This document shows, piece by piece, positions 24,917 through 56,425 of a stretch of DNA of 64,000 bases. The notes under the pieces were generated by a model, which was not told where the DNA came from, searched no databases, and worked only from the letters and a program-made list of their open reading frames with translations. The stretch comes from Solanum dulcamara. Lineage: Eukaryota > Streptophyta > Magnoliopsida > Solanales > Solanaceae. Made by a program: the position numbers and the translations under genes. The DNA lies in the NCBI RefSeq assembly GCF_947179165.1, contig NC_077239.1:70681634-70745633 (forward strand), in the 5' to 3' direction. Position 1 is the first letter of the stretch. The number at the start of each line of letters is the position of its first letter.

Positions 24917-25035
24917 ATTTCGCGAAACCCTCAGCAGGTGATGCTGCCACATGATCTGATCTTTCCTTGCCCGGAGCAATAGAAAAGTTTAGATCATGCT
25001 GGCAGCTTCACCTGCTAGTGGTTCGCGATTCGTTA
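24917..25035 (-). ncRNA. MIR167: MIR167 precursor hairpin (locus 1)
   Basis: On the minus strand, 25009 down to 24989 reads TGAAGCTGCCAGC followed by ATGATCTA: exactly the 21-nt miR167 family sequence. The facing arm, 24956 down to about 24936, reads GATCATGTGGCAGC then ATCACCT, a miR167* that pairs with it with few mismatches and the usual offset. The stem continues outward (GCAGGTG with CACCTGC, then TTCGCG with CGCGAA). The loop is about 32 nt. Family knowledge: miR167 guides cleavage of ARF6 and ARF8 mRNAs (auxin response, flower fertility) and of IAR3. The primary transcript would start to the right of 25035; TATTTATA on the minus strand near 25120 is a possible TATA box. Confidence 0.95.
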
Positions 25036-25759
25036 TCCTTCACATCGGTCCTAGATCCAGAACTTAAGACATTTTAGGTTTTGAGTTGAGCGAACAATTC
25101 TGAGATGTATATCTAATTCTATAAATACTGAGTCGTGTTGACTTCCTTATATCCATATTTGAACTGATTTACCTACAAATACTTGAAATTAAGTATAGGA
25201 GGTGGAGGTGTATATAAAGAGGTGGATGGAGAGAAATGAACCAAAGGAGATCTATCTAGGTAAGTCTTTGGGATATTTCTCTCTAGGTGTTAATAAGTAT
25301 AATTTATTAAAGTGTAGGAGTGAAAAGCTACTTGTGGAAGATGAATAAATGTTAATCCGTTCAAAAAAATAATCTAATTTGATTTAACAAGAAATTTAAG
25401 AAAATAAAAAAGATTTTTTAATTTTATAGTCTTAAATTAAAATTATATCAAAATATCTTTTAATTTTTTGATCTTAACATGTCATATCGAAAACTGAAAT
25501 CAAAAAAATATTTAAAAAGAAAAGAATTAATTATCCTTTAAACGAATGGAAGTAATAATTTATTATTTGTAAAAAAAAGAAAAGAAAAAAAGTTGGAAGT
25601 GGTCCAACTATTAGCCTATAGCCATAGCATATAGTGAGACAACTTGAATATAATCACGCCCACGCCACAAACCCATGCAGACAAATTAAAGGCAACAACC
25701 TCTTTCAGACTTTAAAAAATTTACCCCTTTTAAAGCCTTTAACTTTTGTGAATATGTGC
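25036..25759. other. Upstream region of MIR167 locus 1 with a MITE
   Basis: The right side of the hairpin, so the presumed 5' flank of the primary transcript. Candidate TATA-like sequences lie near 25120 and 25210. A MITE of the CTCCCTCCG class occupies about 25355-25556. No ORF. Confidence 0.4.
25355..25556. mobile_element. MITE of the 'CTCCCTCCG' class (copy A)
   Basis: The ends AATCCGTTCAAAA and TTAAACGAATGGAAGTA are imperfect inverted repeats. The centre contains TTTAATTTTTTGATCTTAACATGTC, similar to other members at 26147, 29170 and 55331. Non-coding. Ends approximate. Confidence 0.4.
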
Positions 25760-26138
25760 GAGCCCGTTTGGATGAGCTTAAAAAAGTAACTTTTATGTAT
25801 GAAGTGTTTTTAGAATTTTGAAGTGCTGAAAGTTATTTTTATAAATAAGCAGTTGAGTGTTTGGATAAAAGTGCTTATGATGTGAATTTTAGGATTAAAA
25901 GAAAAAAAAAGATAGTTTGGGAATTTAGTTAAGATATAAGGGATATAAAAGTAATTTCCATGGTCAAAGAAAATGACTTTAAACACTTTGGAAAAAAAAG
26001 TTAAGAATCCTAACTTTTCATTTTTGACTGACTTTAAGAACTTTCTGGCTTAAAGTCAGCATTAGGCAAACACGTTCAAAAGCTGAAAAGGGGCTTTAAG
26101 TTGGTTTTGACCAACTTAAAGCCAATCCAAACGGGCTC
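25760..26138. mobile_element. hAT-like MITE with GAGCCCGTTTGGAT termini
   Basis: Begins GAGCCCGTTTGGATGAGCTT and ends AGCCAATCCAAACGGGCTC, so the outer 14 bp are perfect inverted repeats, with further pairing (AAAGTAACTT, GACTTTAA blocks). About 379 bp and non-coding. The flanks share only AATAT-like bases, so the target duplication is uncertain. Confidence 0.75.
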
Positions 26139-26146
26139 AATATACC

Positions 26147-26401
26147 ATCCGTTTACTTTTATCTCACAACTTATTTAACAAGAATTAATTTGAATAATTT
26201 TTTGAGCTAAATTAAATTGAATTAATTTAATATTTGAAATTTAGATGTTGGAAAACTATACAAAACACATTATAAGTTGGTAATCATTTTCATATTAATA
26301 TGACAAAAAAATATATGTTAAAATATTGATCAAAATTTATGAAATTGGACTCTCGTGAAATGAAATATGACAAATAAGAATAACGGAAACTAGGGAGTAC
26401 T
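26147..26401. mobile_element. MITE of the 'CTCCCTCCG' class (copy B)
   Basis: The left end CATCCGTTTACTTTTATCTC pairs imperfectly with the right end AATAACGGAAACTAGGGAGTAC. The interior is AT-rich and resembles copies A, C and D. Non-coding. Confidence 0.45.
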
Positions 26402-26619
26402 ATTTGAATTGTGGAACAATCTCATTTAAAAACAAAAATTATTAAAAATAATATATTTCTAATTATTATGTCCCTCAGTTCTCTTATATGCGGTTTGAAT
26501 CTAATTCTTTTTCATGGTCAAATGCGTGTATGGAATTTTGCGTTTTTTAATTTGTTTTTTGCGATCACTATGATATTTAGACCTATGACCCTGTATAAAA
26601 GCCAGAATTCTACTAAGAA

Positions 26620-28163
26620 AAGGGTGTACAAAAATCAAATCGATCAATAAATTGAATTAAAAAAAGTGTTATTAGTTTATTGTTATTGGATTGTTTGATT
26701 AACGGTTATTTAATGGTTTTATAAAAAATAATTATTGAGTTATTGATTCAGTATTGCTTTTTTAATATATATTGGATTATTGGAAGGCAGCGGGGAGATT
26801 GACGATGATGTCACACATCGTATTGGTGCAGGGTGGATGAAATGGAGGCTTGCTTCCAATGTGTTATGTGACAAGAAGGTGCCACCACAACTTAAGGGCA
26901 AGTTCTACAAAGTGGTGGTTAGACCGGCTATGTTATATGGGGCGGAGTGTTGGCCAGTTAAGGTATCTCACGTTCAAAAGATGAAAGTTGTTGAAATGAG
27001 AATGTTGAGATAGATGTGTGGGCATACCAGGAGTGAAAAGATTAGAAATGAGGCTATCCGGAACAAGGTAGGAGTGACCTCGGTGGAAGACAAGATGCAG
27101 GAAATGCAATTGAGATGGTTTGGGCACGTGAAGAGGAGAGACACAGATGTCCCAGTGCGGAGGTGTGAGAGGTTGGCCATGGATGCTTTCAAGAGCTAGG
27201 GGTAGGCCGAAGAAATATTGGGGAGAGGTGATTAGGCAGGACATGACGCAGTTACAACTTACCGAAGACATGATCTTAGATAGGAGGGTGTGGAGGACCC
27301 ACATTAGGGTAGAAGACTAGTCCATAGTCTCGTTATTCTTCCTTTTTAGTAGGCGTATTAATGCACTATAATTCCTTGTGGTCTGATTTCTGTTATAATC
27401 TATTACTTTCTGTACTTAGATTGCTCTATTTTATCTGGGTTGCTTTTGTTATTTGCTCAGTTTTGAACTTCTTATTCTTATCTGACTTCTTTTATGATTT
27501 TACCGAGCTGAGGGTTTTTAGGAAACAGCCGTCCTACCTTGGTAGGAGTCAGGTCTGCGTACACTCTACCCTCTTCAGACCCCACGCGTGGGATTTTACT
27601 GGGTTGTTGTTGTTGTATTGGGTTATTGAATAAACCGATAACCCATTTAGACTATAATAATTTACTATTTTAATTTTTACTCATACATAAATATCAAAGT
27701 ATCAAACAAAAGATATTAATATAATCACTATATCAGATTATCAGTACCCTACACAATTCACACTGTATTTACTCTTTAGGCATTAATATTAATTTAGGTT
27801 CACAATGGCAAAATCTAAAGAACTAAGAACGGCGGCAGCTACGGTTTACAATGACAACAACAAGGGTTAGGCAATGGCTAGGGTTGTGAATTGTGAGTAT
27901 TCACAATAAGAACGTCTGATTTTCTTGTTTCGGTGTATATTATATCGTGTCAAATTGTTGGAGAAGTTGTATATTTGTTTTGAAATCATTTTTTATTGGT
28001 TAAACCGAAAACCAAACTGTTAAAGAGCAAAAATTGATAAACCAAAAACCAATTACAAATATCCTATTGATTTGATTATCAGTTTAGCATATTTAATAAT
28101 CGAAAACGGATAAACCAAACCGATAATACTTAAAATCGAATCGAATTGATCGATACACATCCT
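26620..28163. mobile_element. Fold-back/MITE element (AGGGTGTAC termini) interrupted by a LINE fragment
   Basis: The left end reads AAGGGTGTACAAAAATC and the right end ATCGATACACATCCT, inverted repeats. Inside are multiple AAACCGATAA / AACCAAAC-type blocks. The flanks ACTAAGAA (26612-26619) and ACTAAGAG (28164-28171) form an 8-bp target duplication with one mismatch. Without the LINE fragment and its duplication the element is about 0.7 kb. No ORF of its own. A second member of the family lies at 56864-57535. Confidence 0.65.
26783..27615 (+). mobile_element. 5'-truncated RTE-type LINE copy
   Basis: It encodes the last ~190 residues of the LINE ORF ([23 protein letters not shown], [30 protein letters not shown]), followed by the same 3' untranslated region and TTG-repeat tail as the full copy at 31327-35186. 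It has a TAG at 27011-27013 where the full copy has TGG, and a 2-bp deletion near 27190. Flanks TATTGGATTATTG (26770-26782) and TATTGGGTTATTG (27616-27628) form a 13-bp target duplication with one change. Typical of incomplete reverse transcription. Confidence 0.93.
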
Positions 28164-28171
28164 ACTAAGAG

Positions 28172-30064: not shown

Positions 30065-31570
30065 TTTTCCTTTTGTCCCTACTTTAGTTTATATTCCTCA
30101 CACTTTTTCTCATTTATAACTTTACGAAGAGGCCAAGCGATTGTGACTTGCATATTTTTCTTCTTCATAATTTTGTCACAAAATTACTAGGGGACCATAC
30201 TATGCATATCAAGATTTTGTACGACTTTACAAGCCAGCCCAATTTTTATTATGGTTCTAGAAAGATATTCTATTTTAAATCTTAATTTATGTCCGTATAA
30301 AAAGCAATATATTTTCTTGAGAGAGATCTTGAATATTCCATAAAATTTTGTGCATTACAAAAGATCAAGATGTCAAATATTGACTTTCTCAAATTCTATC
30401 CGATGATTAAATATATTGCAAGAAGGTCCAAATCATCTTACTTTCAAGAAATACGCTATTAACAACTCTCGAATCACGAAAAAAATTTAGAAGAGAAGTA
30501 TCAATATAATACACAGAAGTGTACCCACAATATTTGTTAATAAAATATTTTTATTTATTCATATTTTGTTTGTACTGAAGCAAAATCCCATTGTGGGTTT
30601 TCTTCTATTTGGCCTAAAGTTCTCACAGTCAACAAACCTCTGTCGTTGCAGCCCCGCAGCACCTCCACCAGCAGTGCCCCTCAACTTGCGCTCACAGCTC
30701 ACTACTTATTCTTCTTCTTTCTTTTTCTTTTCTTTCATTTTGCTTGTTTTCCAACGAATACCTCCAGATCTGTTCAGATTTGGCCTAGATCTATTGATTT
30801 CCGGCGTCGTCTCGCGGTTTTCCTTTTGTCCCTACTTTAGTTTATATTCCTCACACTTTTTCTCATTTATAACTTTACGAAGAGGCCAAGCGATTGTGAC
30901 TTGCATATTTTTCTTCTTCATAATTTTGTCACAAAATTACTAGGGGACCATACTATGCATATCAAGATTTTGTACGACTTTACAAGCCAGCCCAATTTTT
31001 ATTATGGTTCTAGAAAGATATTCTATTTTAAATCTTAATTTATGTCCGTATAAAAAGCAATATATTTTCTTGAGAGAGATCTTGAATATTCCATAAAATT
31101 TTGTGCATTACAAAAGATCAAGATGTCAAATATTGACTTTCTCAAATTCTATCCGATGATTAAATATATTGCAAGAAGGTCCAAATCATCTTACTTTCAA
31201 GAAATACGCTATTAACAACTCTCGAATCACGAAAAAAATTTAGAAGAGAAGTATCAATATAATACACAGAAGTGTACCCACAATATTTGTTAATAAAATA
31301 TTTTTATTTATTCATATTTTGTTTGTACTGAAGCAAAATCCCATTGTGGGTTTTCTTCTATTTGGCCTAAAGTTCTCACAGTCAACAAACCTCTGTCGTT
31401 GCAGCCCCGCAGCACCTCCACCAGCAGTGCCCCTCAACTTGCGCTCACAGCTCACTACTTATTCTTCTTCTTTCTTTTTCTTTTCTTTCCTTTTGCTTGT
31501 TTTCCAACGAATACCTCCAGATCTGTTCAGATTTGGCCTAGATCTATTGATTTCCGGCGTCGTCTCGCGG
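30065..31570. repeat. Two adjacent 753-bp direct copies spanning a LINE 5' junction
   Basis: 30065-30817 and 30818-31570 are the same sequence in tandem, with one substitution noticed by eye (CTTTCATTTTG versus CTTTCCTTTTG in the distal part). Each copy holds about 509 bp of pre-existing LTR-like DNA ending in the LINE target site, then about 244 bp of the LINE 5' end. Both breakpoints share TTTTCC (30065-30070, 30818-30823, 31571-31576). The first copy therefore carries an orphan LINE 5' end at 30574-30817, in front of the full LINE. Confidence 0.95.
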
Positions 31571-31583
31571 TTTTCCATTTTCT

Positions 31584-31698
31584 GGTGTGAACAGTGTTTC
31601 CGGCGTGAACAGTATTTCCGGCGTGAACAGTGTTTCCGGCGTGAACAGTGTTTCCGGCGTGAATAGTGTTTCCGGTGTGAACAGTGTTTCCGGCGCAA
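31584..31698. repeat. 18-bp minisatellite in the LINE leader
   Basis: About six units of GTGAACAGTGTTTCCGGC with a few substitutions. The 18-bp period leaves both strands open, producing spurious ORFs. GC-richer than its surroundings. Confidence 0.92.
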
Positions 31699-31819
31699 AT
31701 CAGGTTCTTTTCAACTGGAGTTGGTACCTCCGGTTTATCTATATTTTTGTTCATACACTTATCGTTGCATTTTGCTAACTTTAGATTTTTGAATAATTTA
31801 TTAATTCCTACATATTTTC

Positions 31820-34774
31820 GTGGCTTTAGATAGTGATGGTAGATTAAGGTCATGTTCTCATTCAGGGACGGGGTCGGGGACGAGGGTAAGGAGGGGTAAG
31901 TGGGTTAAAGGAGCGTCTAGACTGAGAGTTGGTTCTTGGAATATTGGAACGTTAACGGGCAAATCCATAGAGCTAGTTAAAATTCTAAAGAAGAGAAAGA
32001 TTAATATAGCTTGTGTCCAAGAGACCAAATGGGTAGGTTCTAAAGCTAGGGAGGTAGACGGGTATAAGCTTTGGTTTTCAGGTAGATCAAAATATAGGAA
32101 TGGGGTAGGCATTTTAGTAGACAATGATCTAAGGGATCAGGTAGTGGAGGTTAAGAGAGTCAACGATAGGATGATGTCGATTAAGGTGGTCGTTGAAGGG
32201 AGCACATTCAACATTATTAGTGCTTATGCGCCACAAGCGGGCTTAAGAGAGGAGGATAAGAGGCGCTTTTGGGAGGATTTGGACGAGTTAGTAGGAGGTA
32301 TACCACCTACTGAGAAGCTTTTCGTGGGAGGGGATTTCAATGGTCACATCGGGTCTATTTCAGGAGGGTATGATGATGTGCATGGAGGCTTTGGCTACGG
32401 GGTCAGAAATGTAGGAGGCCTTTCACTTTTGGAATTCGCAAGAGCTTTTGGGTTGGTCATAGCCAATTCGAGTTTCCCAAAGAAGGAAGACCACTTGGTA
32501 ACATTCCATAGTTCGGTGGCTAAGACTCAGATAGACTTTTTACTCCTGAGGAAGGTCGATAGAGGTCTGTGCAAAGACTGTAAGGTCATTCCGATAGACA
32601 ACCTTACAACCCGACATAAGCTTTTGGTGATGGATTTAGGGATCAAGATGATGAGGAATAAGAGGGTCGGGGATGATCGATTTAGGATCAGATGGAGGAG
32701 TTTGACCACTGCTAATGCCCTGGAGATGGGAGAGAAGTTGAAGGCCATGGGGGCCTGGGATAGTAATGGGGATGCGACCAGTATGTGGGATAGGACGGCT
32801 AATTGTATTAGGACTGTGGCAAGGGAAGTGTTGGGAGTCTCGACTGGTAGTCGTAGTCGGCATCGAGGAGACTGGTGGTGGAATGGAGAAGTGCAAGAAA
32901 AGGTGGAAGCAAAGAAGATGGCGTACGCAAAGTTGATAGAAAGCATAGATGAGGTGGAGAAGTGGATGAATAGGGAACTTTATAAAATAGCGAGAAAGGA
33001 GGCGAAGTCGGCGGTTTCAACGGCAAAAACAACAGCTTTTGAACGCCTTTATGCTGAACTAGAAGAGAAAGGTGGGGATAGAAAATTGTTCAGGCTAGCC
33101 AGGGCGCGGGAGAGAAGGGCACGCGATGTGGACCAAGTGAAGTGCATTAAGGATGAGCATGGAAAAGTATTGGTAGACGAGACCCTCATTAAACAGAGAT
33201 GGCAGTCCTATTTCCATAAACTCTTGAATGAGAAAGGGGACAGAGACTTTGTGTTGGGAGATTTAGAACATACAGAGAGGCGTTGCAATTTTGGGTATTG
33301 CAGGAGTATTAAGGTTGAGGAGGTTAAGAGTGTCGTTCGTAGGATGCGCTGGGGAAGAGCAACCGGACCTGACGAGATTCCTGGGGAATTTTGGAAGAGC
33401 ACGAGTTCGGTAGGTTTGGAGTGGTTAACTAGGTTATTTAATGTCATCTTTAAAACGGCAACGATGCTCGAAGAATGGAGGTCGAGCATAATGATCCCTC
33501 TATACAAAAACAAAGGGGATATACAGAGTTGCAACAACTATAGAGGTATTAAGCTACTAAGCCATACTATGAAACTGTGGGAAAGAGTGGTAGAGATGAG
33601 GGTGAGGAGAGACGTGTCTATTTCAGAGAACAAGTTTGGATTTATGCCGGGACGCTCAACTACAGAAGCCATCCATCTTATGAGGAGACTGGTGGAGCAG
33701 CATAGGGAGAGGAAGAGGGACTTGCATATGGTATTCATCGACCTAGAAAAGGCTTATGATAAAGTCCCAAGAGAAATACTATGGACATGTTTGAAGGCTA
33801 AAGGTGTACCTATGGCATACATTAGGGTGATCAAGGACATGTACGAGGGAGCCAAAACCAGGGTAAGGACAGTAGGAGGGGACTCAGAGCACTTCCCAGT
33901 GGTGATGGGGTTGCATCAAGGATCAGCTCTTAGTCCTTTTTTATTTGCCTTGGTGATAGATGGATTGACGCGACAAATTCAAGGTGCGGTGCCATGGTGT
34001 ATGCTTTTCGCGGATGACATAGTCCTGATCGATGAGATTCGCCGCGGAGTTAACGCTAAGCTGGAGGATTGGAGACATACCTTGGAGTCTAAAGGGTTTA
34101 AGTTGAGTAGGACAAAGACAGAGTACTTAGAGTGCAAGTTCAGTGAGACACCTCAGGAGGTTGACGTTGAAGTTAGGCTTGGTGCTCAGGCCATCCAAAA
34201 GAGAAGTAGTTGCAAGTATCTTGGGTCTATCATGCAAGGCAGCGGAGAGATTGACGATGATGTCACACATCGTATTGGGGTAGGGTGGATGAAATAGAGG
34301 CTCGCTTCCGGAGTGCTATGTGACAAGAATGTGCCACCAAAACTTAAGGGCAAGTTCTACAAAGTGGTGGTTAGATCGGCTATGCTGTATGGGGCAGAGT
34401 GTTGGCCAGTTAAAACTTCTCACATTCAAAAGATAAAAGTTGCTGAGATGAGAATGCTGAGATGGATGTGTGGGCACACCAGGAGCGACAGGATTAGAAA
34501 TGAGGCTATTCGGGACAAGGTAGGAGTGGCCTCGGTGGAAGACAAGATGCGGGAAATACGACTGAGATGGTATGGACATGTGAAGAGGAGAGACACAGAT
34601 GCCCCAGTGCGGAGGTGTGAGAGGCTGGCCATGGATGGTTACAGAAGAGGTAGGGGTAGGCCGAAGAAGTATTGGGGAGAGGTGATTAGACAGGACATGG
34701 CGCAGTTACAGCTTACGGAGGACATGACCTTAGATAGGAGGATGTGGAGGACCCACATTATGGTAGAAGGCTAG
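31820..34774 (+). pseudogene. LINE endonuclease/reverse transcriptase ORF, one in-frame stop
   Basis: One frame stays open for about 980 codons except TAG at 34295-34297. N-terminal endonuclease motifs: [41 protein letters not shown]. Reverse transcriptase motifs: [49 protein letters not shown], catalytic FADDIV near 34003-34020, and KYLGS. The C-terminal part carries [10 protein letters not shown] and [11 protein letters not shown]. The truncated copy at 26783 has TGG (Trp) where this copy has TAG. The frame opens with GTG at 31820 and the first in-frame ATG is near 32168, inside the endonuclease domain. The normal start has thus been lost or lies in another frame. Its role was target-primed reverse transcription of its own RNA. 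Confidence 0.93.
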
Positions 34775-35251
34775 TTCATAGTCTCGTTATTCTTCTCTAT
34801 TCATAGGTGTAGTAGTGCATTACGAGCTCTTGCGCTTTGACTTCTGATTTCTGTTATTTCTGTTATTATTTATTACTTTCTATGCTTTGATTACTCAATT
34901 TTACCTGTGACGCTTTCATTATTTATTTAATCGTTATTTGTTATTAGTATTTATTTATTTGTATTTATTTGTTATCTATTCGTTATTTGTTTGTTATTTT
35001 TCTCATAAAGCTTTTAATTTTCTATTCTTATCTAACATTTTTTATGCATTTATGCTTTTACTGAGCCGAGGGTCTCCAGGAAACAGCCGTCCTACCTTGG
35101 TAGGAGTAAGGTCTGCGTACATTCTACCCTCCCCAGACCCCATGTTGTGGGATTTCACTGGGTTGTTGTTGTTGTTGTTGTTGTTGTATTCATATTTTGT
35201 TTGTGGTTGGAGTTTTTTTTTCTATATAAATTGTTGCAAATAAATTGGCAT

Positions 35252-37445
35252 TATAACACATCAAAAATTTCTAATCTAAGATTCGAATCATTCTTCATAG
35301 GTGTATAGATCGATACCGGGTGATTCCATATTGTACATAGGTGTTAAGATCAATTCTTTAGTGTAGGAAGGGTTTTGGGGATGAATTAAGGTCATAAAGA
35401 TCCTCTTCCACAAAGTTGAGTGAAAAGCTTTTTTATCAATTGACTTTCGGTATAAGTTTTTACTTGTGTCAACTTCAAATGAGTAGATCTCTTAGAATAT
35501 GAAGAGTTATGTGTCCCATTATTACCAAATTAAAAATTTTTGAATCTTGTTTCCAACGTCGCTGACCTCTTGTCAATCTGAGGTCCAAGTCAAAAGTTAT
35601 GATCATTTCAGTTTTAAATGACATTCTGGAAAGGAGTTGCGGACCATATGCATACAGCAAGTCCACAACTGCGAAATGCATGTGGAGAAAAAACTAAAAG
35701 GTATTCTGTTTTGACATGCATTTCGCCCGCGTACATCAAGTCCGCACCTACGGAACACACGTGGGGATGTATACGTAGGTGGGCCGACGAAGAACCTCTT
35801 AAGTCGATTTTAATTCTTTTTTTTCCACTTTTGGCCATTCTTTCAAGACTTAGAAGTGGTTTTCTCTCCTCCTCTCATTCTCCTTCATCAAGTTAAGTCA
35901 TTCTCTATGGATTTCTTTCCAACTCAAATTCCTTCGTCTATTCATGGATCATTAATAGAAATCTTAACCCTTGACAATAGGATTTTCAAGAAATGAATCC
36001 AAGAATTTTAAGAAAAGGGTTTCTTGATCGTTCTTCATCAAGTTAGGATTTCTCTTCAAAATATATTAAGCGTTGAAGGTATGTAAGACAACCAAAGTGA
36101 GGAACTAAGTTTTTCCTCATGCTCTACATCTATAATTTCACTTAGTAAGATCAAAGCTAAGGGTTTTTAATCCAAAGTTTATAATTTTGAATTTTCTCTA
36201 TCACCTATCGTTGATTCTTGATTTTATTAACAAAATTATTGTACTTCATATCATTAATGATTAATGATTCATCGTTCATGCTTATTATACCTCATAGACT
36301 TCTTACTAGCCAAAGTTATTTAAAAATCTTGTCATAGTATTTCATATGCATTGTTTTCATTATAAAAGTAAGTTCAAAAAACAATTATTATCTTTAATTT
36401 TAAGTGCATTATTTTAGAAAGAGTTTCAAGAAAGTAAATTTTTACCTCAAGCGTATATTTTCATAAAGAAAGCAAAGCCAGCTTTTAAAAAAAGCATATC
36501 TCAGCTTGGAGAAAGCATAGTCAGATTTTTAGAAAAACATAGTTAGATTTTCATAAACGCATAGTTAGATTTTTAAGAAATACAGTTTAGTTATAAAGAA
36601 CTATTTTGAGCAAAGTCTCATATTTAATTCAGATATATGGAAAATTTATCTATTTATAAGCATATAAGTATATACAAATTATTTTGGGAGGATTATTTAG
36701 CACCGAGAAGACACAAGTTTAGAAAACCCATCAGATGATGAAAGTATTTTTAAAACAACTTGCATAATATTTTACATTTTTCTTTTTTCTAAATATCATA
36801 TATTTAGATATCATATTTCAGTTAATCAATTTTAGAATATATCCCAGCTTTGCAGCTGAAAATCTTATTTTCTCTGTTCAATTGATTTTATTTAGTCTTA
36901 CTTCAGAGTTATTCATTCAACTTAGTATGTTCAGTTTTATCTAGTTGTTTCATTCAACTATATATTTTATATACTATACATTCCATACATTGATGTCATT
37001 CGATGCCACAACTTTTAATAAAGCAGATTCAGGTATTCAGAATCAACAGCAGACGCATTAGGATCAACTTTAATCACCTCGCTTTCGGAGTTCTCCAATT
37101 TATTTTTATTTTGAGTATTAGTAGTTAGTATATGTTATTAGTAGAGTATTCAGGTAGTCAGGGGTCTTGTCCCGATAAACTATCTTCAATATGTTAGAGG
37201 CTTCATAGACGAGCCAGTTAAGTTATAGTCTTAGTTGTTTTACAAACATATGCATATTATACAAATTTCTTATTTTTAATTATAAAGTTATTGTGTTTGA
37301 TTTTAAAAGTTATTGCATTCTTATCTTTTTAAAGTTTTTTCATTCGTTAGTATTCAGTCTTATAATATGCTAGGCCCAAAGTTCGTTGGTCTAGCAATGG
37401 TTCCAAGTACAGATCTCGCCAAAGGTGTAAACTCAGGGCATGACA
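35252..37445. mobile_element. Solo LTR (about 2.2 kb), family shared with 40836-51729
   Basis: Starts TATAACACATC (a mutated TGTAACACCCC) and ends CAGGGCATGACA. Flanks GGCAT (35247-35251) and GGCAA (37446-37450) agree in four of five bases. Blocks shared with the LTR at 40836-51729 include GTATGTTCAGTTTTA, GTCAGATTTTTAGAAAAA, CAAGTATCAGGTATTC-like and the poly-adenylation-side end. No internal region, so it formed by LTR recombination. Confidence 0.78.
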
Positions 37446-40140: not shown

Positions 40141-40144
40141 ATAA

Positions 40145-43456: not shown

Positions 43457-43556
43457 CTACATATAAAGTAACAATACAATATATAAAAACCACATAGTTG
43501 ATTAAAATTAGGGTTAGAGAAATAAATAACTTATATACTAGTGATAATCTATCACT

Positions 43557-46500
43557 CTATTCTTCCTCACTTGTTTCATTTTCGTCATCTTTCCATTCGT
43601 CCTTCTCAGATGTTTCATATTCATTGTCAATCCATTCCTCCCCCTCAAATAATTCATATTCCTCGTTTACTTCTTCCTCAACATTTGGCATTATAAGTTC
43701 ATCATCAGAAACCTCTTCTACTATGTGTTGAGGAAGTTCTAGTATGGTTTCCAACTCAACATCAACTTGTCGTTGAACAAGTACAACATCATTTTGGTAC
43801 GCCACATCTAATACATTCTCAATTTCAATTCTTCCCACAGGCTTTGTCTTAATGATAACCTACCAATCAGCCTTATTTCTACGCAATGGATATGGAGCGT
43901 AATAGACTTGCTTAGCATTTTGGGCAATGATGAAAGGATCATAACTTCCGTATTGTCTGGTGTGCTTAACTTCAATTATATTATGTTGTTGGTCCACCCT
44001 TGTGTCTCTATGTGATGGGTCAAACCACTTACACCGAAACAATACTATCTTTTTTTTAGGCCAACCTGAATATGTTACTTCAATAATCTCCTGAATGACA
44101 CCATAATATTCTACAATTTGGCCATTACCATCTACATCACCTTGAATGCACACACCACTATTATTGGCTTTCTTGTGCATAGAAACTTCTTCAGTTTGAA
44201 ACTTAAAACCATTCACACAATATTTATTCATTGTATGAATATGAGATGCAGGCCCGAGTGCGATCTCTCTCACAAATGGCGAATGTTCGACACTTGAGTA
44301 TTCATCATAAACCTATAAATTGATTTTAAAATAATACAGTTTACTATAAGGTTAAAACATTATACCTATTGATTCAATATAAGCTTTTACACTTACATAA
44401 TCCTTTAGCCATTTGAAAAACCTCGTATATATGGCTTTATTGCTCCATGTGCATACGAACGTGCTGATAGTGATATGTACAATTTTGATAGTTAGTAATC
44501 AGTTATTAATATGTAATTTGATAATTTAATTTCACACTTACTTAAGATATGACTGAATTTCTGGACAGTTAAGCAATACATGGGTCACAACTGATTGTCT
44601 TTCCATGTTAGTGAAGCTTCGTCTTTCACGCTGTTTAGATCCTCGACCACAATGATTAAAAATTGAAATCGATGGATACATCGGATCACTATCACCTTCA
44701 TCATTGCGATTAGGCCTATTTCTCCTGCATGGAACTTCATCCCCAAAGTAATAGGAATAAAAGTCACCAGTTTCTCTTGCAATATGAGAATGAACAATTG
44801 AGCCTTCGATTTTTCCTCTCTGTTTAATTGTTTGTTTGCAGCTTCCAATTTTCCTAAATATATGTTAAGTAATAATTATAGTATATATATACGAAGAATA
44901 AATTAACTACTTATATAAGAAAAACGTTACCTCTCAAATGGATACATCCACCTTGTTTGAACTGGACCTCCAAGGCGGGCTTCTTTAACAAGATGAATCG
45001 GAAGATGCTCCATCACATCAAAAAACCACATGGAAAAATCTTCTCTAGCTTTGTAGTAATAACAACAAAATTTTCCTCCATCCTTTCTAAACTACTCTCC
45101 AACAACTTTCCAGAACATAAATCTCTAAAGAAAAGACTTACCTCTGTGATTGGCTTCCATATCCTGTCAGGTAGATGCCTAGAAGCGATAGGAATCAATG
45201 TTTCCATGAATACATGACAATCATGGCTTTTCATACCTATTAACTTTCCTTCATTCAGATCTGCCCGCTTACCCAAATTCGAAGCATATCCATCTGGCAT
45301 TCTCAAATTTTTAATCCACTCACATATATCACATTTCTCATTCAATGTGAATGAATAACTGGCTTTAGGCTTGACAGTTTTACCATTTTGTAATTCTTGC
45401 AACCACAATTCTTTTCTCCTACAGTATTCTTGTAAGTCCATTCTAGCTCTTGTGTTGTCTTTTGTCTTGCCCTTAACATCCATCGTTGTGTTAAATAAAT
45501 TGTCAAAATAATTTTTCTCAATATGCATCACATCAAGATTATGTCGTAGGAGATTATCCTTCCAATACGGCAACTCCCAGAATATGCTCTGTTTGGTCCA
45601 ATTATGTTCAACACCATATCCAGGAAGTCTAGATGGTGGAGTTTCTGTAACTTTAGGCAATTGAGAAACTCTCTCCCAAATTTGATGTCCTGTTAGTGAT
45701 GGAGGTGGAGGGTCATTTTCAACCCTGTTTTTTTTTAATGCATGTTTCATCTTTCTAAACTCATGGTTCATTGGTAAGAACTGATGATAACAATCAAACC
45801 ATGAATTTTTTCTTCCATGCTTTAAGGTGAATACCTTACTATATTCCATGTAATGAGGACAAGAAGCTTTTCAGCAGTCATCCAACCAGACAACATTCCC
45901 TATGCAGGAAAATCATTAATAGTCCACATTAAAACAGTACGCATAACAAAATTTTGCTTAGTTGATATATCGTAAGTCACTACTCCTTCAAACCACAATT
46001 GTTTAAGTTCATCTATCAATAGTTGTAGATAGACATCATTCAAACTTTTAGGATTACGAGGACCTGGAATAACACAACTTAGAAAGATGTACGGACTTGT
46101 CATGCATATTTCAGGAGGAAGGTTGTACTGGGTAAGAAATACAGGCCAGCAAGAATAAGGTGAGGCAGCATTAGAGAATGGTGTGAAGCCATCTGCACAT
46201 AACCTCAATCGTATATTTCTTGGTTCACTAGCAAAATCAGGATACATATTATCAAAATGTTTCCATGCTTCTCCATCAGATGGATGTGACAAGACATCCG
46301 GCGGCCTTCTATATTCACGGTGCCATCTCATATGTGGGTCAGACCTCATCGATGCATACAACCTCCTTAATCTGGGAATAAGAGGTAAATAATGCATCGC
46401 CTTAATTGGGACCATCTTTCCAGCAGGAGTCCTCTTATAACGAGCTTGTCCACAAAACTTATAATTTTCTAATTCACTATCAGTCTTGTAGAACAACATG

Positions 46501-47246
46501 CAGCCATTAACACAACAATGAATTCTATTATACGACAATCCTAACTTGGAAACCAATCTCTTTGCCTGATAGAAGTTCTTAGGTATGTTAAACTCAGGAT
46601 TAACCAGTTCGCCCAAAAGATCAACCATTGAGTCCATAGCCGCATGAGGAACACTCCAATCTGATTTAATATTCATTAACCTGACTGCAGCTGACAAAGT
46701 AGAATGTAGACTCCCTTCACATAGTGGACGACTAGCCTCTTCTAAATGTTGATAGAAGCATCTTGCTTCTTCATTAGGAGTTTCATCAAAATATTGTTCG
46801 GGTTCCATCCCACCTTGAACCTCGAACGCATCATTAACCATTTCATGAACTCTATCATGTTGAAGTGTATAATGTTGAACTCTATCATGTAGAACCCTAT
46901 CATGTTCAACACTAATTTGACCATGTGGTGCAAGCATATTATATTCATCCACGGGCAGCAGATTATAAAATATATTATTCAATAATCCATCTATTTCTCT
47001 ATGATCAACCCATACAAAATATCTAGGCTTAAATCCATTACCATACAAATGAACCATAACTATATCTAGATTAAAAAATTTCAAGCACCTACATTCACGA
47101 CAAGGACACCTAACCAATCTATTTCGCTTAAAAACATCAAGTGTCATGGCATGATCGATAAAACTTCTTACACCGTTAATAAATTCAGGTTTCAAACCAC
47201 CACCAACTTCATAATGCATGTTATACATCCACAAACGATGATCCAT
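43557..47246 (-). pseudogene. CACTA TNP2-type transposase, broken
   Basis: ATG at 47246. Order: transposase-associated N-terminal zinc-binding region (VRCPCRECRCLKFFN, HLYGNGF), then the Transposase_21 core through 45900 and on from 45849 (SKVFTLKHGRKNSWFDCYHQFL, NLDVMHIEKNYFDNLFNT). Next comes a DUF4218-like region (TRWMYPFER near 44935, intron, then an exon at 44855-44535 with CRRNRPN and HVLLNCPEIQSYLK). Last is a DUF4216-like region (44300-43860, RCKWFDP, PFIIAQNAKQVYY), ending in a very acidic tail at 43838-43557. Lesions: TAG at about 45898 in place of an expected Tyr, a one-base frameshift near 45860, and a one-base shift at the A6 run 45020-45025. The catalytic protein for excision is therefore not made by this copy. 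Confidence 0.92.
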
Positions 47247-47249
47247 CTA

Positions 47250-48130
47250 CAAAATTACATATATTCAAGTGTAATTAGTTCATAAGGACTACAATTCATC
47301 GAGACTATAACTGACATTAATTCAAGTTATAACTAATTAATTCATATAATAATTCAGTTCAAGTTATAATTAATTTAAGTTATAATTAATTAATTCATGT
47401 AATAATTAAGTTCAAGCTCTACTTAATTTAAGTTATAATTAATTTAAATTATAATTAATTAATTCATATAATAATTAATTCAATTTATAATTAAGTTCAA
47501 GTTCTAATTAATTCAAGTTATAATTAAGTTCAAGTCCGAATTAATTCAAGTTATAATTAAGTTCAAGTTCTAATTAATTCTTGTTTTTTATATAGGGAAA
47601 TCAAGAATTCCAAAAATTCACAACTAAAGATTCCAATTTTGAGGGATTTCTACCATGAATAACTTCAATCGAGCAAAGCCCGTATCAAAAACTACAAGCT
47701 AAAACATTAAGGTAAATCAAGAATCTCAAAAAAGCACAACTAAAAATTTCAAATTTGAGGAATTCCAACCAATAATCAAGCAAAACCCATATCCAAAACT
47801 ACAAGCCAAACCATAAAAGGAAATCAAAAATCTCAAAAACTTAAAGCTAAAGATTCCAACTTTAAGAAATTCCAATCAATAATATCTTCAATCCAACAAA
47901 ACCCATATCATAAAGCTAAACCATAAAAATAAATCAAAAATCTCAAAAAATCACAGCAAAAGATTCCAACTTTAAGCAATGCAACCAATTATAACTTCAA
48001 TCCAACAAAACCAATATAAAAAAACTATAAGCTAAACCATAAAATGAAATGAACTACAACAAACTAAATATAATCACCTAATTAACAAATGACAAATAAA
48101 AAAAATTAAAATTTAGTTTTAGGTTTAAGC
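47250..48130. other. CACTA 5' non-coding region with AATTAA-type short repeats
   Basis: Between the TNP2 start and the right subterminal array. 47310-47580 is built of short variants of TTCAAGTTATAATTAA. 47600-48050 contains three or four imperfect ~110-bp blocks with AATCAAGAATCTCAAAAA, CAACTAAAGATTCCAA and ATAACTTCAATC. No ORF. It may hold the promoter and leader of the element. Confidence 0.6.
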
Positions 48131-48319
48131 CCTAACCTCTTGAAAATGAATAATAGTCCAAAAGCTCCATAAGACGGCGGCGGCGACGGTTGACTGACGG
48201 AGGATTGAGAGACGGTGGTGGGACGGCGCTGGGATGGACGGATTTAGAGAGAAGGCAGAGAGAAATAGAGAGTTTAGAGAGAGAGAGAAAACTGGAAAAA
48301 ATACGTTCTGTATTGAACA

Positions 48320-48773
48320 TATTTAACAAAAAGCGACGGACAGAGTCTATAAGTTCGTCGCTTTTTTAAAAATATTTGATCGCCATTTTGACCAAAAAGC
48401 GACGGACAAAGCCAAAACCGTCCGTCGCTATTTTAAATATGTTGACCAAATATTTTGACCAGTAGCGACGTACTTAGCGACCCAGTCCGTCGCTACGTTA
48501 AAAAAAACATGCGACGGACGGCGTCTTAATATTTAATTTATAAATAATTATTTTTTAATAAAATATATAAAATATTTATATAAAAATAATATTTAATTTT
48601 AGCGGAAAAATCTGCCAAAATAAGCGACGAACTAGGCGTCACTGTCCATCGCTCCTATTAAAAAAAAAATTTTAAAAAAAACGACGGACAACGTCGTTTA
48701 ATCCGTCGCATTTTATTTGCGACGTAGTCCGTCGCTTTGTGTTCTATCGTTTTTTGGCAGTTTTTTAGTAGTG
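48320..48773. repeat. Right subterminal repeat array of the CACTA element
   Basis: About ten GCGACGGAC / GTCCGTCGC motifs in both orientations, mirroring the left end, in AT-rich spacers, terminating in the inverted repeat GGCAGTTTTTTAGTAGTG. Confidence 0.9.
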
Positions 48774-49216
48774 GAACCTCTAGCGCTAAGTCGAGTTCAA
48801 AACTTTCCTACTGATTAAGTTTTCATATAAGTTCAAACATGGGTAAACTTTAAATAACTATATCTCCAAGAATATAAAGAATTATGTAGCTTATAACCTA
48901 TCAAATTAAAGGTATGTTAGTCTAGTTTCCAACACAATTAAGAATTTGTCAATTCGATATGTGAGTAAGAAGTTATGCCCATTTTATTGAGCATTGCGCT
49001 GAGGTCCACGCCACAACTATCATCAAACTAAACTTTAGAGGCTGGAAACCATCCTAGGTCCTCGATGGGGCCCACAAGGTGACTCCCCAAGGTCTGCAAT
49101 GAGCCTCGTGACAGACCCCTTGTTCTTATGCAAAAAATGCATTCGTCTAATTAAGGGTAGTTCGGTTTATTTTTTTCTTAAAAAATCTTTCCGTTCGATT
49201 TTTTAAGTCCCGTATA

Positions 49217-50046
49217 GAGATAAGTGTCAAAAACACACCAAAACTATTCCTCTTTTTTGAGTTTCATACCTAAACTATCACTTCTCAGTTTGAGAAACAC
49301 ACCTTAGTGGTGTGTGTAATACACTCTCTTTACTTTCTCTATTTTTTAAATTTTTTTGCACATGGCTAAAATATTCTATATTGATAAAAATTAAATAAAC
49401 TATTTATATTAGTTAAAAGTTAAAACTAAAGTATTTCTATCCCCCCAAAAAGATTATTTTTTTAAAAAAATGAAATTATTCTTTTTAAAAAGTTATTTTT
49501 TTTAAAAAAGTTTAAAATATTTTTCTCACTCATGTGTATATACCTAACACAAAACGAGAAAAAAATTGAAAGCGGAGGGCTAGGTGTTGCGGTATAGAAT
49601 TCTTTTTTAAAAAAAATATAAAAAAAATATTTAAATTATTATTTGAATGGGAAGGAGGAAGATGAAGTAAGAATTTTTTTAAAAAAACTTTTATAAAAGA
49701 AATTTAGAAAATAAAAATAAAACAAAAAATGTGTGGGGGGGGGGAGGGGGGAAGTATGGTGAGAAAAAGTGATGGAGTGGGGTAATAAAAAAGGGTGAGA
49801 TAGTAATACTTTAATATTTAATTTTAACTAATTCTAAGAATTTATTTAATTTTTTTTTAGGTGGAATATTTTATCTATGTGGAGTGTGATGTGATAAATT
49901 TTTTAAAATGAAAGAGAGATTGTAGCACACACACCATTGTGAGAGTGAAATAAAAGAGAGAGGTATGATTTTCAAACTAAGAATTGATAGTTTAGGTATG
50001 AAACTCACATTCTCAATAATTTATGTGTGTTTTTGACACTTATCTC
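49217..50046. mobile_element. Non-autonomous Mutator-like element (830 bp) with 9-bp target duplication
   Basis: Flanked by TCCCGTATA at 49208-49216 and 50047-50055, an exact 9-bp duplication, the Mutator length. The ends GAGATAAGTGTCAAAAACAC and GTGTTTTTGACACTTATCTC are perfect inverted repeats. Similarity continues for about 100 bp (GAGTTTCATACCTAAACTATCA on both arms). The interior is AT-rich with a G-rich run (49735-49755) and has no ORF. Confidence 0.93.
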
Positions 50047-51734
50047 TCCCGTATAAGCATGAGATCAAGGGGATTTCTCATTATTTTCTTTCAAGAGTTT
50101 CAAGACAAAAATCTCTTAGAGTGCCAAACTTAGGGTTTTGTTCAAGCAAGTCCATAGTTCTTCCTTCTAGATTTTCTATCTACTCTTCTAGGTATGCAAG
50201 GCAATCTTAGTGAGGAACTCATTTCTTCCTCACATCGCAACATCTATAGTTTCAGTTCGTAAGATCAAAACTAGAATATTTAATTCTATATCTATTATTT
50301 AAAATTACTCATTGTTGATTCTACTATTGAAATCATTGTACTTCATATTGTTGGTGATCTTTGATTGATTTAAGGTTCATGCTTATTCTACTACATGGTC
50401 CTTTCTTAGATAAAGTTATTTGAAAACCTAGTCATAGTATTTCATATGCATTATTTCATAAGTATATTATAAATTTTAAAGAAGTATTTCAAGATAGAGT
50501 TCGAAAAAGTATACTTTGCCTCAAGTGCATATTTTAAGAAAGAAAGCATTGTCAGTTTTTAAAGAAAACATGTTCAATTTTTTAAAAGGTATATCTCAGT
50601 TTTGAGAAAGCATAGTCAGATTTTTAGAAAAAAGTATAGTCATTTCATAAAAACTATATTTATCAATTAAAAAGCAAATCAAATTCAGTTCTAAAGAACT
50701 ATTTTGAGCAAGGACTCAAAGAAAGAGATTTTCAGTTTTCCCCTAAAGTGGGACATTTTTCCCATAGTGTGATAACTTTAAAGTTCTTGAGCACCCGTGC
50801 ATGTTTTGGGAGTAGTAGTGAGCATCGAGTTAGGTAAAACTTTACTTAATTCAAACTCCAAAACTGTATCATGGAGGATAGAATCGTGTCATTGATTCGG
50901 ACGCCTCCTCAGAAAGCCATTGGTAAGGGCTCAGAGATAAGATCCCTTAGTTAAGTTTGTTCTTTATTCCGATAAGGTATAGAATGACTCTGGCAATGTG
51001 AACAATCATTGTATTATAATAATGCTTACGTGATGATCGTCGATTAGAGAAATTCGCCAAGAAAAGTAAAGTTAAATTATTTTCAGTATTTGCTATTATT
51101 GCATATTTTCAATTGTAAAATTTTGTTATAAAAGTACACATGTATGCTTTACTACCTAGTTGACTTTATTACAGCTCATCTTCAGAGTTATTCACTCAAC
51201 TCAGTATGTTCAGTTTTAGTCAGTTGTTTCATTCAGCTATTTTACGTATAACACATTTTATGTATTGACGTCATTTTACGATGCATCCTTTTATGATGCA
51301 AATTCAGGTATTCTAAATCAGCTATTGATGAATAATTAAGATCTCACTCTCATCCAACTTTGGTGAGACATTCTTGCTTTTGGAGGGCTCCAATGTATCT
51401 AGAGTTTTAGTAGTTATTAGATATTTCTAGTAGAATATTCAGGTAGCAGAGGATCTTGTCTCAGCACCTATCTTCGGTACATTTGAGGTTTCATAGACCA
51501 GTCAGTTGAATTATAGCTTTCATCATTGCTTACAAACATATGCGTATTATACATATTTTAGATTTTTAACTATTAAGTTATTGAGTTCGTTTTCTAAGTT
51601 ATTGCATGCTCATTTTTTAAAAGCTTTTACACAGTATTATATCATTTAGTTAGTAGCAGGCCAAATCAACAGTTCCAATAATGATTCCTAGTGTCAGCCA
51701 CGTTCAGGATATAGACTCAAGGCATAATAGACTC

Positions 51735-53904: not shown

Positions 53905-55330
53905 GCATAACCGTTGCGTTTTCTTGCAAATTTTCAATGAGATATGGATTAGAAAAATGTCTTTTCAAGGGTGTATTGAGCAACTATATATTCGTTGCCA
54001 TGCTCAACTGTAGAGTCCTATATATCCAAATTATTATTTTCCTTCTACTGCACATTGTTGGTGGTGTTTAAAATTTTAATATACATTTTTTAAAAAGCTT
54101 TTTTTTTATTTATATACACAATATTATTTTTAATATGCACAATAATTTCTTTTGACAAAAGGTGAATGTAGCTCCGCCCTTGACGGTAATGAATGACTTA
54201 TGAATATTAAGCACTAATTTTAACACATCAAAAATGTATAAACGTTGAGCCGAATTTATTTAGTTAATTTGAGCTGATTTTAAAGTTTACGCAGGCAAAT
54301 TAGTAAAGATCCATTGCTCTTTCAGTATTGATCATTGTAATGTCGCCTTTTGTTCGTCAAAGTTTTGGAAACCATAATATTAAAATTTAGCTATTATAAT
54401 TGGCAAAATTTGAAAGCCACAAATGATAAAATTTAGCTATCATAATTGGCAAAAATTTGAAAGTCACTCATGTTGAAATTTGACCATCATAATTGTCAAA
54501 TATTTGATAGCCATAATACTTGATATATTCAAGTTAAAATGTTAAAATTTTGTATCTTTCCAATAATATCATCCATCACATCAAACAACCTATTTTTCTT
54601 CTATAAATAGGAAAGTTGGCTTATAGAAAAATTGATCATTAGTTGAAATATGAAATATATGAAAACATTTCATTACTTTCTTTATTTGTATTTTCATTAA
54701 TAATTATTTTATAAGAGAATTAGTGTTAAAAAACATTTGTGTGAACCTTTATTTTGAACTGATCTTGTGAGGTTATTCTCTTGAGATATTTGAAGTAATT
54801 AAAGTATTTACTCTAATATTGTACTCTTATTGATATAGTAAAATTCTCCTCTCCGTACATAGACTAAATTATACCAAACCGAACCACATAAAATTAATGT
54901 TCTCTTTATTTATTTTTATTTTCATTATTATCAACTTACTATTATCTTTGTAATTATCATTATAACATTATTTGATTAAATTTCGCAATACCGAAATACT
55001 CAAACCTAACAATCATGATATTATTAATTTTTAATTCCATTAGGTGAGATCTGTGAGTGTAAAGGAAAAAGAAAAGTGGGTTTGTTTAGGATCATATTTG
55101 GAACAAGAAATCTGAATAACTAATTTTATTAATTAAAACGTGTCACCAATCTAATAGGGGACTGGAGGGACTGGAAGTAAGGAGCACTGGAGGGGAGCCA
55201 GCTCCGTCCATTTTAATATTGATTTGTTTACTTTCGAAAATAATTAATTTTAAGAACAAAATAGGAAAAAAATAATTCACTTTTATCTTAATCTTATTTA
55301 TTGATTAGTACTTTAAGAGGGGCATTTTTA
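53905..55330. other. AT-rich DNA with short tandem repeats and a possible decayed LTR
   Basis: 54375-54530 has three imperfect ~57-bp units around AAAATTTAGCTATCATAATTGGCAAAA, then TTTGAAAG. 54550-55010 resembles the 3' part of a Copia LTR (CTCCTCTCCGTACATAGAC, then ACCACATAAAATTAATGTTC, then CTTTATTTATTTTTATTTTC), but no boundaries or coding sequence confirm it. No gene is supported. Confidence 0.4.
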
Positions 55331-55575
55331 GTACTCCCTCCCATTGTCATATTTTACTTCTCCAAAGTTAATTTAATTAATTTTTAACGTTAAATTAAAT
55401 TAGATTAATTTGATATTTTAAATTCAACATTTAAATATTAAAATACTATCTAGAAAATATATATTGAAAATTTTCTAACATCAATATGATTAAAAAATAT
55501 ATTTTGAAATACTATTCGAAATTCAAATCGTTTGACTGGTAAGTGTGAAAATTATTTTAGAATGGAGCAAATAAA
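55331..55575. mobile_element. MITE of the 'CTCCCTCCG' class (copy D)
   Basis: The left end AGTACTCCCTCCCATTGTCA pairs imperfectly with the right end GAATGGAGCAAATAAATGC. The interior holds ATTAAATTAGATTAATTTGA-type AT-rich sequence. Non-coding. Confidence 0.5.
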
Positions 55576-55979
55576 TGCAATTTACATAAATCAGGTAATG
55601 TTAAAAGCTAGTTACATTATTTTTCTATTCTTTTTTAAATTATAAAAATTCTTAAAATAATTAAATTTCAAATACATCACCAATTTTTCATATATATCAA
55701 GGGACATTTAAATACATTAGAGAAAAATGTATCCGAAAAGAGAAGATATTTCAAATAGAAGATAGAAATGTATCAAGAGAGAAGATATCACATTTGGATC
55801 GATAGAAAGGAATGTATTAGAAAAAGAAGGGATGTATTCATAAAAAGGATAGGAATTGTCAGCAAGAAGGAAGTTTTCCATTTTTTATTTTAGCAAACCA
55901 AAAGGTTTTATTACTTTTATTTTACTACATACATACTATATCCACTGTACCTTCACAGACCTCAATCTTCTTTGATTCA

Positions 55980-56075
55980 TCTGGATCAACAGAAACTTAT
56001 CTGGTATGCACGTCTTGGGCATGTCAATCGATTGCTGCTACTATTAAGATGATTCCAATAGGATGTATCATGCAA
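55980..56075 (+). pseudogene. Copia GAG-pre-integrase fragment
   Basis: A short plus-strand reading gives LDQQKLIWYARLGHVNR, the conserved W(H/Y)-ARLGHVN motif of Copia GAG-pre-integrase. No adjoining gag, integrase or LTR is recognisable. It is a minute relic about 250 bp from the second MIR167 hairpin. Confidence 0.6.
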
Positions 56076-56324
56076 GTCACAAAAACATAACATAGATTAT
56101 ATATATTTTATAACATAGATTTGTAAACATTTTACTGACAAAGCTTTTCGAAAGGAGGATTCACTATATATAGAAGATATAATTGAATATACTAATAATA
56201 AGATGATTTGGCTGGTCAATTAGTTCATCAAGCGAGAAAAAGATGATGTTTAGGGGAGGTCTAAGGATGAAGATGCAAAACTCCTTGTATATAGAACAAG
56301 CAAAAAGTTAGAATGGAGTCATCA

Positions 56325-56425
56325 AGAAAGGAAGGAGTGAGGCTGTCCGAGCATGACCTAACCTTAGTCACCTATTCAAGTGGCCAAGTTTAGATCATGC
56401 TGGCAGCTTCACTTGTTCCACTCTA
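56325..56425 (-). ncRNA. MIR167: MIR167 precursor hairpin (locus 2)
   Basis: On the minus strand, 56411 to 56391 reads TGAAGCTGCCAGC then ATGATCTA, the 21-nt miR167. The facing arm, 56358 to about 56336, reads GGTCATGCTCGGAC then AGCCTCACT, the other classical miR167* form, with a bulged pairing. The loop is about 32 nt and the stem extends with GGAAC and GTTCC-type pairs. Its star arm and loop differ from locus 1 although the mature sequence is the same. It targets ARF6/ARF8-type mRNAs by family knowledge. A TATATAAG box lies about 100 bp upstream (56511-56518), so transcription leftwards is well placed. Confidence 0.96.

What the first reader, a model, noticed from the sequence alone, without database searches (positions are those of the whole stretch)
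24917..56425. Two MIR167 genes on the same strand, 31.4 kb apart, separated only by transposons
Both hairpins (24917-25035 and 56325-56425) carry the identical 21-nt miR167 in the 5' arm, with nothing but repeats between them. This suggests an old local duplication pushed apart by element insertions, so spacing could differ widely between related species. Regulation of ARF6/ARF8 by two linked loci would make single-gene knockouts weak.
Basis: partly seen in the sequence, partly recalled or inferred. Interest (0 to 1): 0.75.

Follow-up and report, generated by a model that had tools for sequence, protein, structure and literature searches.

The report
Two linked, non-sister MIR167 genes
Two genes that make the same plant microRNA (miR167) sit 31 kb apart in a plant genome, but they look like members of two anciently separated branches of the family rather than copies of each other, so the genes are ordinary and only their being neighbours is a little unusual.

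Summary
The exact 21-nt miR167 occurs twice, both on the minus strand (24990-25010 and 56391-56411, 31,401 bp apart; 0.01 expected by chance), each in the 5' arm of a strong hairpin. The spacer is mostly mobile or repeated DNA: 20,904 of 31,284 bp could be assigned, and six-frame Pfam scans of nearly all of it found only transposon domains.

The interpretation needs correcting. Outside the mature sequence, the two precursors are about as alike as shuffled sequence (59%; 17 of 300 shuffles as good). Locus 1 clearly resembles two other MIR167 genes of the same genome (68% and 74%; 0 of 300). Its star equals a star reported in tomato. Locus 2's star is one base of 23 from stars reported in castor, trifoliate orange, poplar, date palm and asparagus. 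Castor has both types, so the branches split before rosids and asterids did. No position-matched flank homology supports a local duplication. The duplexes differ too: a bulge in the miRNA arm at locus 1, in the star arm at locus 2, which suggests, but does not show, 22-nt versus 21-nt products. How the two became or stayed linked is open.

The parts
24917..25035 (-). MIR167 hairpin, locus 1 (a-type)
   Evidence: fold -74.5 kcal/mol over 24900-25060, 0 of 200 shuffles as good; Rfam MIR167 match below gathering score on both strands
24990..25010 (-). mature miR167 of locus 1
   Evidence: exact 21-mer
24937..24957 (-). predicted star of locus 1, AGATCATGTGGCAGCATCACC
   Evidence: 0 mismatches to a star reported in tomato roots as miR167f (PMC4814767); duplex geometry
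56320..56430 (-). MIR167 hairpin, locus 2 (b-type)
   Evidence: fold -61.1 kcal/mol over 56280-56450, 0 of 200 shuffles as good; no Rfam match up to E = 1
56391..56411 (-). mature miR167 of locus 2
   Evidence: exact 21-mer
56336..56358 (-). predicted star of locus 2, GGTCATGCTCGGACAGCCTCACT
   Evidence: 1 mismatch of 23 to the b-type star of castor and others; duplex geometry
40986..48773 (-). CACTA DNA transposon between the loci: CACTAC...GTAGTG termini, GAA target duplication
   Evidence: termini and GAA on both sides read; inverted ends; Transposase_21, Transpos_assoc, DUF4216, DUF4218, Transposase_24
31581..35187 (+). LINE with endonuclease and reverse transcriptase, ending in GTT repeats (left boundary approximate)
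   Evidence: Pfam RVT_1 and Exo_endo_phos in ORF 31805-34294; alignment
26781..27616 (+). 5'-truncated second copy of the LINE 3' end
   Evidence: 85% and 81% identical pieces; alignment with shared GTT tail
36077..37342 (.). old LTR-like repeat, left copy (about 70% identical to 50190-51631)
   Evidence: no clean ends found, so LTR is an inference
50190..51631 (.). old LTR-like repeat, right copy; the pair brackets the CACTA element
30065..31580 (.). recent tandem duplication of about 0.75 kb, 99.7% identical
49216..50047 (.). inverted-repeat element
   Evidence: inverted self-match 68.9%; inverted arms
26185..26337 (.). small A+T-rich repeat, also at 55368-55523 in the same orientation
   Evidence: 70.6%; 3 block-shuffled windows gave no hit
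1..4402 (-). SR-cyclophilin (CYP63-like) gene, 3' end cut by the window edge; neighbour, not part of the pair
   Evidence: Pfam PF00160, exons, 72% over 205 residues to a protein named Arabidopsis lyrata CYP63

Best explanation
These are two MIR167 genes of different, ancient branches. Locus 1 is an a-type gene, kin to two other MIR167 loci of the same genome (L003, L004). Locus 2 is the only b-type one among the genome's four exact miR167 loci. They now lie 31 kb apart in DNA swollen by transposons. Each is most likely its own transcription unit whose hairpin DCL1 cuts to the same guide, repressing ARF6/ARF8 (known pathway; not tested here). The bulge sits in the miRNA arm at locus 1 and in the star arm at locus 2, so locus 1 is predicted to favour a 22/21-nt duplex and locus 2 a 21/23-nt duplex. 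Shown here: sequences, folds, predicted duplex geometry, kinship, spacer content. Inferred: transcription, product length, targets, age of the split (from star sequences in papers).
For: Kinship: locus 1 to L003 68%, to L004 74%, 0 of 300 shuffles each; locus 1 to locus 2 59%, 17 of 300. Star types; castor has both (PMC3722108, passages). Duplex geometry of the four loci: L001, L003, L004 have one unpaired nt in the miRNA arm, L002 two in the star arm. Reported tomato stars equal the predicted 21-nt stars of locus 1 and of L003 (PMC6950276). PMC4036516 (passage) reports star reads for four tomato MIR167 genes. Castor rco-miR167b (a-type star) is mostly 22 nt in 4 of 5 libraries.
Against: Short precursors carry little signal: locus 2 keeps some likeness to L004 (62%, 2 of 300). 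No tree was built. Product length: castor rco-miR167c, listed with the a-type star, is mostly 21 nt in 5 of 5 libraries, and 22 nt was the minority for rco-miR167b in root; 21-nt reads of identical guides cannot be assigned to one gene. Locus 2's exact star was in none of the papers searched. No expression data of this species; no clear TATA excess upstream (1 and 4 sites against 1.9 and 2.1 expected). Neither hairpin reaches Rfam's gathering score.
Confidence: 0.8

Rival explanations
1. Ancient tandem pair: a- and b-type arose by tandem duplication before the rosid-asterid split and stayed linked in this lineage, while transposons filled the gap.
For: They are linked on the same strand; tomato's atlas lists two of its four identical-guide genes at consecutive numbers 408 and 409 (PMC9569937, passage; order inferred); a CYP63-like gene lies nearby, and Arabidopsis MIR167b is recalled to lie near CYP63.
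Against: No flank homology, though none is expected after so long. Tomato is too close a relative to test age. As recalled, no a-type gene lies beside Arabidopsis MIR167b.
Confidence: 0.35
2. Secondary linkage: an a-type gene copy was moved or duplicated to the neighbourhood of the old b-type gene by a rearrangement or dispersed duplication.
For: Locus 1's kin are dispersed: 6.3 Mb away in the opposite orientation, and on another contig.
Against: No trace of a moved segment: the best flank match between locus 1 and L003 or L004 is 28 bases or less.
Confidence: 0.5
3. Local duplication of one gene within Solanaceae, later pushed apart.
For: Identical guide, same strand, 31 kb apart, transposons between.
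Against: Precursors at near-chance similarity, stars of two types that coexist in castor, flanks without position-matched homology.
Confidence: 0.04
4. One of the two hairpins is a silent relic.
For: No expression data here; PMC4036516 (passage) dismissed two further miR167-like tomato sequences as not genes; Rfam does not reach its gathering score at either locus.
Against: Both fold far below shuffles and keep the exact guide and a branch-typical star; stars were reported for four tomato genes (PMC4036516).
Confidence: 0.1

Closest known systems
Tomato MIR167 genes with the Arabidopsis miR167a guide (four: PMC4036516; atlas numbers 280, 408, 409, 414 in PMC9569937)
   Same: Four exact-guide loci here too; reported tomato stars equal those of locus 1 and L003; two consecutive plus one nearby atlas number fits two adjacent loci plus one 6.3 Mb away.
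   Different: Orthology and positions were not checked (table not readable); neither passage seen describes the pair as linked members of two branches.
Castor bean rco-miR167a (b-type star) and rco-miR167b (a-type star), PMC3722108
   Same: Same guide and the same two star types within one species.
   Different: Genomic positions of these two are not in the passages seen.
Arabidopsis MIR167a and MIR167b (tree of PMC4602222, section 6)
   Same: They fall in different clades (MIR167b in clade I with grass, soybean, apple and poplar members; MIR167a in clade VI). Locus 2's outer stem resembles MIR167b as recalled.
   Different: This window's loci were not placed in that tree. As recalled, the two Arabidopsis genes are far apart on one chromosome.
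Tomato miR156 and miR159 clusters (PMC9569937)
   Same: Linked miRNA genes of one family.
   Different: Those are runs of 3 or more genes, one described as about 2.1 kb long and thought polycistronic; here two genes, 31 kb apart, of different branches.

Membership tests
MIR167 | Mature sequence identical to miR167 | tested here: met
   Both loci, exact 21-mer; same sequence listed as miR167 in castor and date palm
MIR167 | Hairpin with the guide in the 5' arm | tested here: met
   Both loci, minus strand
MIR167 | At most 5 mismatched nt in the duplex, at most 3 in asymmetric bulges (as quoted in PMC9569937, part 1) | tested here: met
   Locus 1: one mismatch, one 1-nt bulge; locus 2: one mismatch, two 1-nt bulges (predicted folds)
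MIR167 | Precise processing with star reads | not testable with these tools
   No small-RNA data of this genome; tomato stars identical to those predicted for locus 1 and L003 are reported
MIR167 | Rfam RF00640 gathering score (detection threshold) | tested here: inconclusive
   Locus 1 58.2 bits (+) and 45.3 (-) against 100; locus 2 no match up to E = 1. The model consensus carries the complement of the guide in its 3' arm, so it models the opposite strand
MIR167 a-type (star like AGATCATGTGGCAGYWTCACC) | Star type, locus 1 | tested here: met
   2 mismatches of 21 to castor b/c star, 0 to tomato miR167f
MIR167 a-type (star like AGATCATGTGGCAGYWTCACC) | Star type, locus 2 | tested here: not met
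   10 mismatches at best
MIR167 b-type (star GGTCATGCTCTGACAGCCTCACT) | Star type, locus 2 | tested here: met
   1 mismatch of 23; 23-nt star predicted
MIR167 b-type (star GGTCATGCTCTGACAGCCTCACT) | Star type, locus 1 | tested here: not met
   10 mismatches at best
MIR167 b-type (star GGTCATGCTCTGACAGCCTCACT) | Shared neighbourhood with CYP63, as in Arabidopsis | tested here: inconclusive
   CYP63-like gene starts 52 kb from locus 2 and 20.6 kb from locus 1; the Arabidopsis MIR167b locus number is recalled and was in no paper found
Local (tandem) duplicate pair | Residual homology of flanks in matching positions | tested here: not met
   one upstream alignment reached by 2 of 100 shuffles is out of register
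Local (tandem) duplicate pair | The two copies are each other's closest relatives | tested here: not met
   Among the four exact loci, locus 1 is closer to L003 and L004; no tree, and mismatch copies not searched

The most novel reading that the evidence does not exclude
An old two-gene MIR167 neighbourhood beside CYP63 in which one gene is built to give 22-nt miR167 (the length that can start secondary siRNAs on targets such as ARF6/ARF8) and the other only 21-nt miR167, so that one chromosomal neighbourhood sets the balance of the two forms.
Probability: 0.12. Interest if true: 0.65.

Novelty: new member of a known kind. Interest (0 to 1): 0.36.

Why it matters
It corrects a tempting inference: linked miRNA genes with the same mature sequence need not be recent duplicates. 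It also gives a usable test, because the two genes can be told apart by star sequence and perhaps by product length in small-RNA libraries. For genetics, removing either or both linked genes would still leave at least two loci with the exact guide. If the linkage and the length difference both proved old and general, it would be a real surprise about how the miR167-ARF6/ARF8 switch is built.

Tried and rejected
Rejected: a tandem-duplication signature in the flanks. Rejected: the 36 kb/50 kb repeat pair as a trace of gene duplication, since its offset of about 14.2 kb does not fit 31.4 kb and it brackets the CACTA element. Led nowhere: the exact 20-mer in viral and prokaryote contigs (0 and 0); TATA-like sites (1 against 1.9 expected, 4 against 2.1); a 22-base likeness in the near upstream regions (47 of 300 shuffles as good); shared genes around L003 and L004 (top matches shown coincide with transposon ORFs where those were identified; no shared host gene seen); a cyclophilin within 70 kb of L003 or L004 (none at E 1e-3); other miR167-like or b-type star sites within 70 kb of them (up to 5 mismatches: only one 5-mismatch guide-like site near L003 and one 5-mismatch a-star-like site near L004). 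Not done because the genome search was unreachable: miR167 copies with mismatches, cyclophilin paralogues genome-wide, copy number of spacer pieces. Not done by choice: a tree, structure prediction, covariance model.
Full report
What is there. The window is C3:70,681,634-70,745,633 of a genome of 942,432,443 bases in 32 contigs. No call names the species. Two star sequences identical to tomato ones point to the tomato group; that MIR8008 is a potato-family name and that the size recalls Solanum pennellii are from memory. The exact miR167 21-mer lies at 24990-25010 and 56391-56411, both on the minus strand, against 0.01 expected. Both minus-strand hairpins fold far below shuffles (0 of 200 each). 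The 20-mer occurs four times in the genome without mismatch: the two here, C3:77,055,003 (+; L003) and C8:78,790,114 (-; L004). Copies with mismatches could not be searched, as the tool did not answer again.

They are not each other's closest kin. With the mature sequence removed, locus 1 and locus 2 are 59% identical, reached by 17 of 300 shuffles. Locus 1 is 68% identical to L003 and 74% to L004, and L003 is 73% identical to L004, reached by 0 of 300 each. Locus 2 is 59% identical to L003 (30 of 300) and 62% to L004 (2 of 300), so it keeps a little likeness to L004. No tree was built. Stars agree: locus 1's equals tomato miR167f AGATCATGTGGCAGCATCACC (PMC4814767, passage) and differs in 2 of 21 from castor's a-type star; locus 2's differs in 1 of 23 from GGTCATGCTCTGACAGCCTCACT. 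The latter is listed in castor, trifoliate orange, Populus euphratica, date palm and asparagus (passages), and tree peony appeared in a listing only. Castor, a rosid, has both types (PMC3722108, passages), so if star type marks descent the branches separated before rosids and asterids did; PMC4036516 (passage) puts tomato and Arabidopsis 90-112 million years apart. In the tree of PMC4602222 (section 6 read in full) Arabidopsis MIR167a and MIR167b fall in different clades, and MIR167b's includes grasses.

Duplex geometry. The predicted folds of L001, L003 and L004 have one unpaired nt in the miRNA arm (nt 12 or 13). With 2-nt overhangs, a 22-nt guide then goes with a 21-nt star beginning AGA, the form in which the tomato stars for locus 1 and L003 are reported. 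L002 has two single unpaired nt in the star arm, so a 21-nt guide goes with a 23-nt star, the length reported for b-type stars. Castor supports the length idea only in part: rco-miR167b (a-type star) is mostly 22 nt in 4 of 5 libraries, root being the exception, and rco-miR167a (b-type) is listed at 21 nt; but rco-miR167c, listed with the a-type star, is mostly 21 nt in 5 of 5, and identical 21-nt reads cannot be assigned to one gene. The claim is a hypothesis. One cotton paper lists miR167 among triggers of phased siRNAs (PMC6861988, abstract and passages); which length did it is not stated in what I saw.

The spacer (25036-56319). It holds a CACTA transposon at 40986-48773 with CACTAC/GTAGTG termini, a GAA target duplication and tnp2-type ORFs; a LINE ending at about 35187 and a truncated copy at 26781-27616, both with GTT tails; an old LTR-like pair at 36077-37342 and 50190-51631; a 99.7% tandem duplication at 30065-31580; an inverted-repeat element at 49216-50047; and a small element at 26185-26337 and 55368-55523. 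Together with a fragment at 37844-38005 these make 17,758 bp; likeness to 280 kb around L003 and L004 raises the assigned part to 20,904 of 31,284 bp. Six-frame Pfam scans of 25036-34990, 35176-45100 and 47247-56319 gave only LINE and CACTA domains. About 10.4 kb is unassigned, and genes without a Pfam domain cannot be excluded.

Flanks. Upstream-upstream local alignment of 1.5 kb gave a score reached by 2 of 100 shuffles, downstream-downstream 58 of 100. The strongest match (0 of 100) joins the upstream flank of locus 1 to the downstream flank of locus 2: it is the small element above, out of register with any tandem copy.

Neighbourhood. The left edge (about 1-4402, minus) is a plant SR-cyclophilin, 72% identical over 205 residues to a protein named Arabidopsis lyrata CYP63. 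Arabidopsis CYP63 is At3g63400 (PMC5431436 and PMC9727951, passages). I recall MIR167b as At3g63375, which would mean a shared neighbourhood, but no paper found names that locus, so it stays a lead. No cyclophilin was found within 70 kb of L003 or L004.

Tomato. PMC9569937 (parts 1 and 2 of 10, and passages) lists seven tomato MIR167 genes, four with the Arabidopsis miR167a sequence, at table numbers 280, 408, 409 and 414. Members of known chromosome 8 clusters carry close or consecutive numbers there, so numbers seem to follow genome order; 408, 409 and 414 would then match the pattern here (two adjacent, one 6.3 Mb away) and 280 the locus on the other contig. The table itself was not read. 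The paper counts only runs of three or more genes as clusters. Six searches showed no paper describing this pair as linked members of two branches in the listings and passages seen; subscription papers and supplements were not covered.

Verdict. Real and functional-looking, ordinary as genes. The linkage of two old branches is a modest curiosity whose origin, retained or secondary, is open and testable.

Noticed in passing
41263-41384 and 48319-48375: Repeats inside the CACTA element's ends match Rfam MIR8008 (52.1, 51.5 and 37.3 bits, below its gathering score of 66). This suggests that the MIR8008 family may be CACTA end-repeats rather than a true miRNA family.
   Followed up: partly
24929-25021: Rfam RF00640 (MIR167) scores locus 1 higher on the plus strand than on the strand that carries the guide (58.2 against 45.3 bits), and its printed consensus carries the complement of miR167 in the 3' arm; the model seems to be built on the reverse strand.
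   Followed up: partly
1-4402: SR-cyclophilin gene of CYP63 type on the minus strand, running off the left edge of the window.
   Followed up: yes
8375-14963: LTR retrotransposon of copia type with LTR pieces 91-97% identical and gag/integrase/RT domains on the minus strand; further copia-type remnants at 18190-18913.
   Followed up: no
7569-7915: Four 84-bp tandem repeats, 97% alike.
   Followed up: no
52066-55367: 3.3 kb of very A+T-rich DNA (about 24-25% GC) just downstream of locus 2 with no repeat or Pfam match.
   Followed up: partly
61000-64000: Ty3-type gag domain on the minus strand at the right edge.
   Followed up: no
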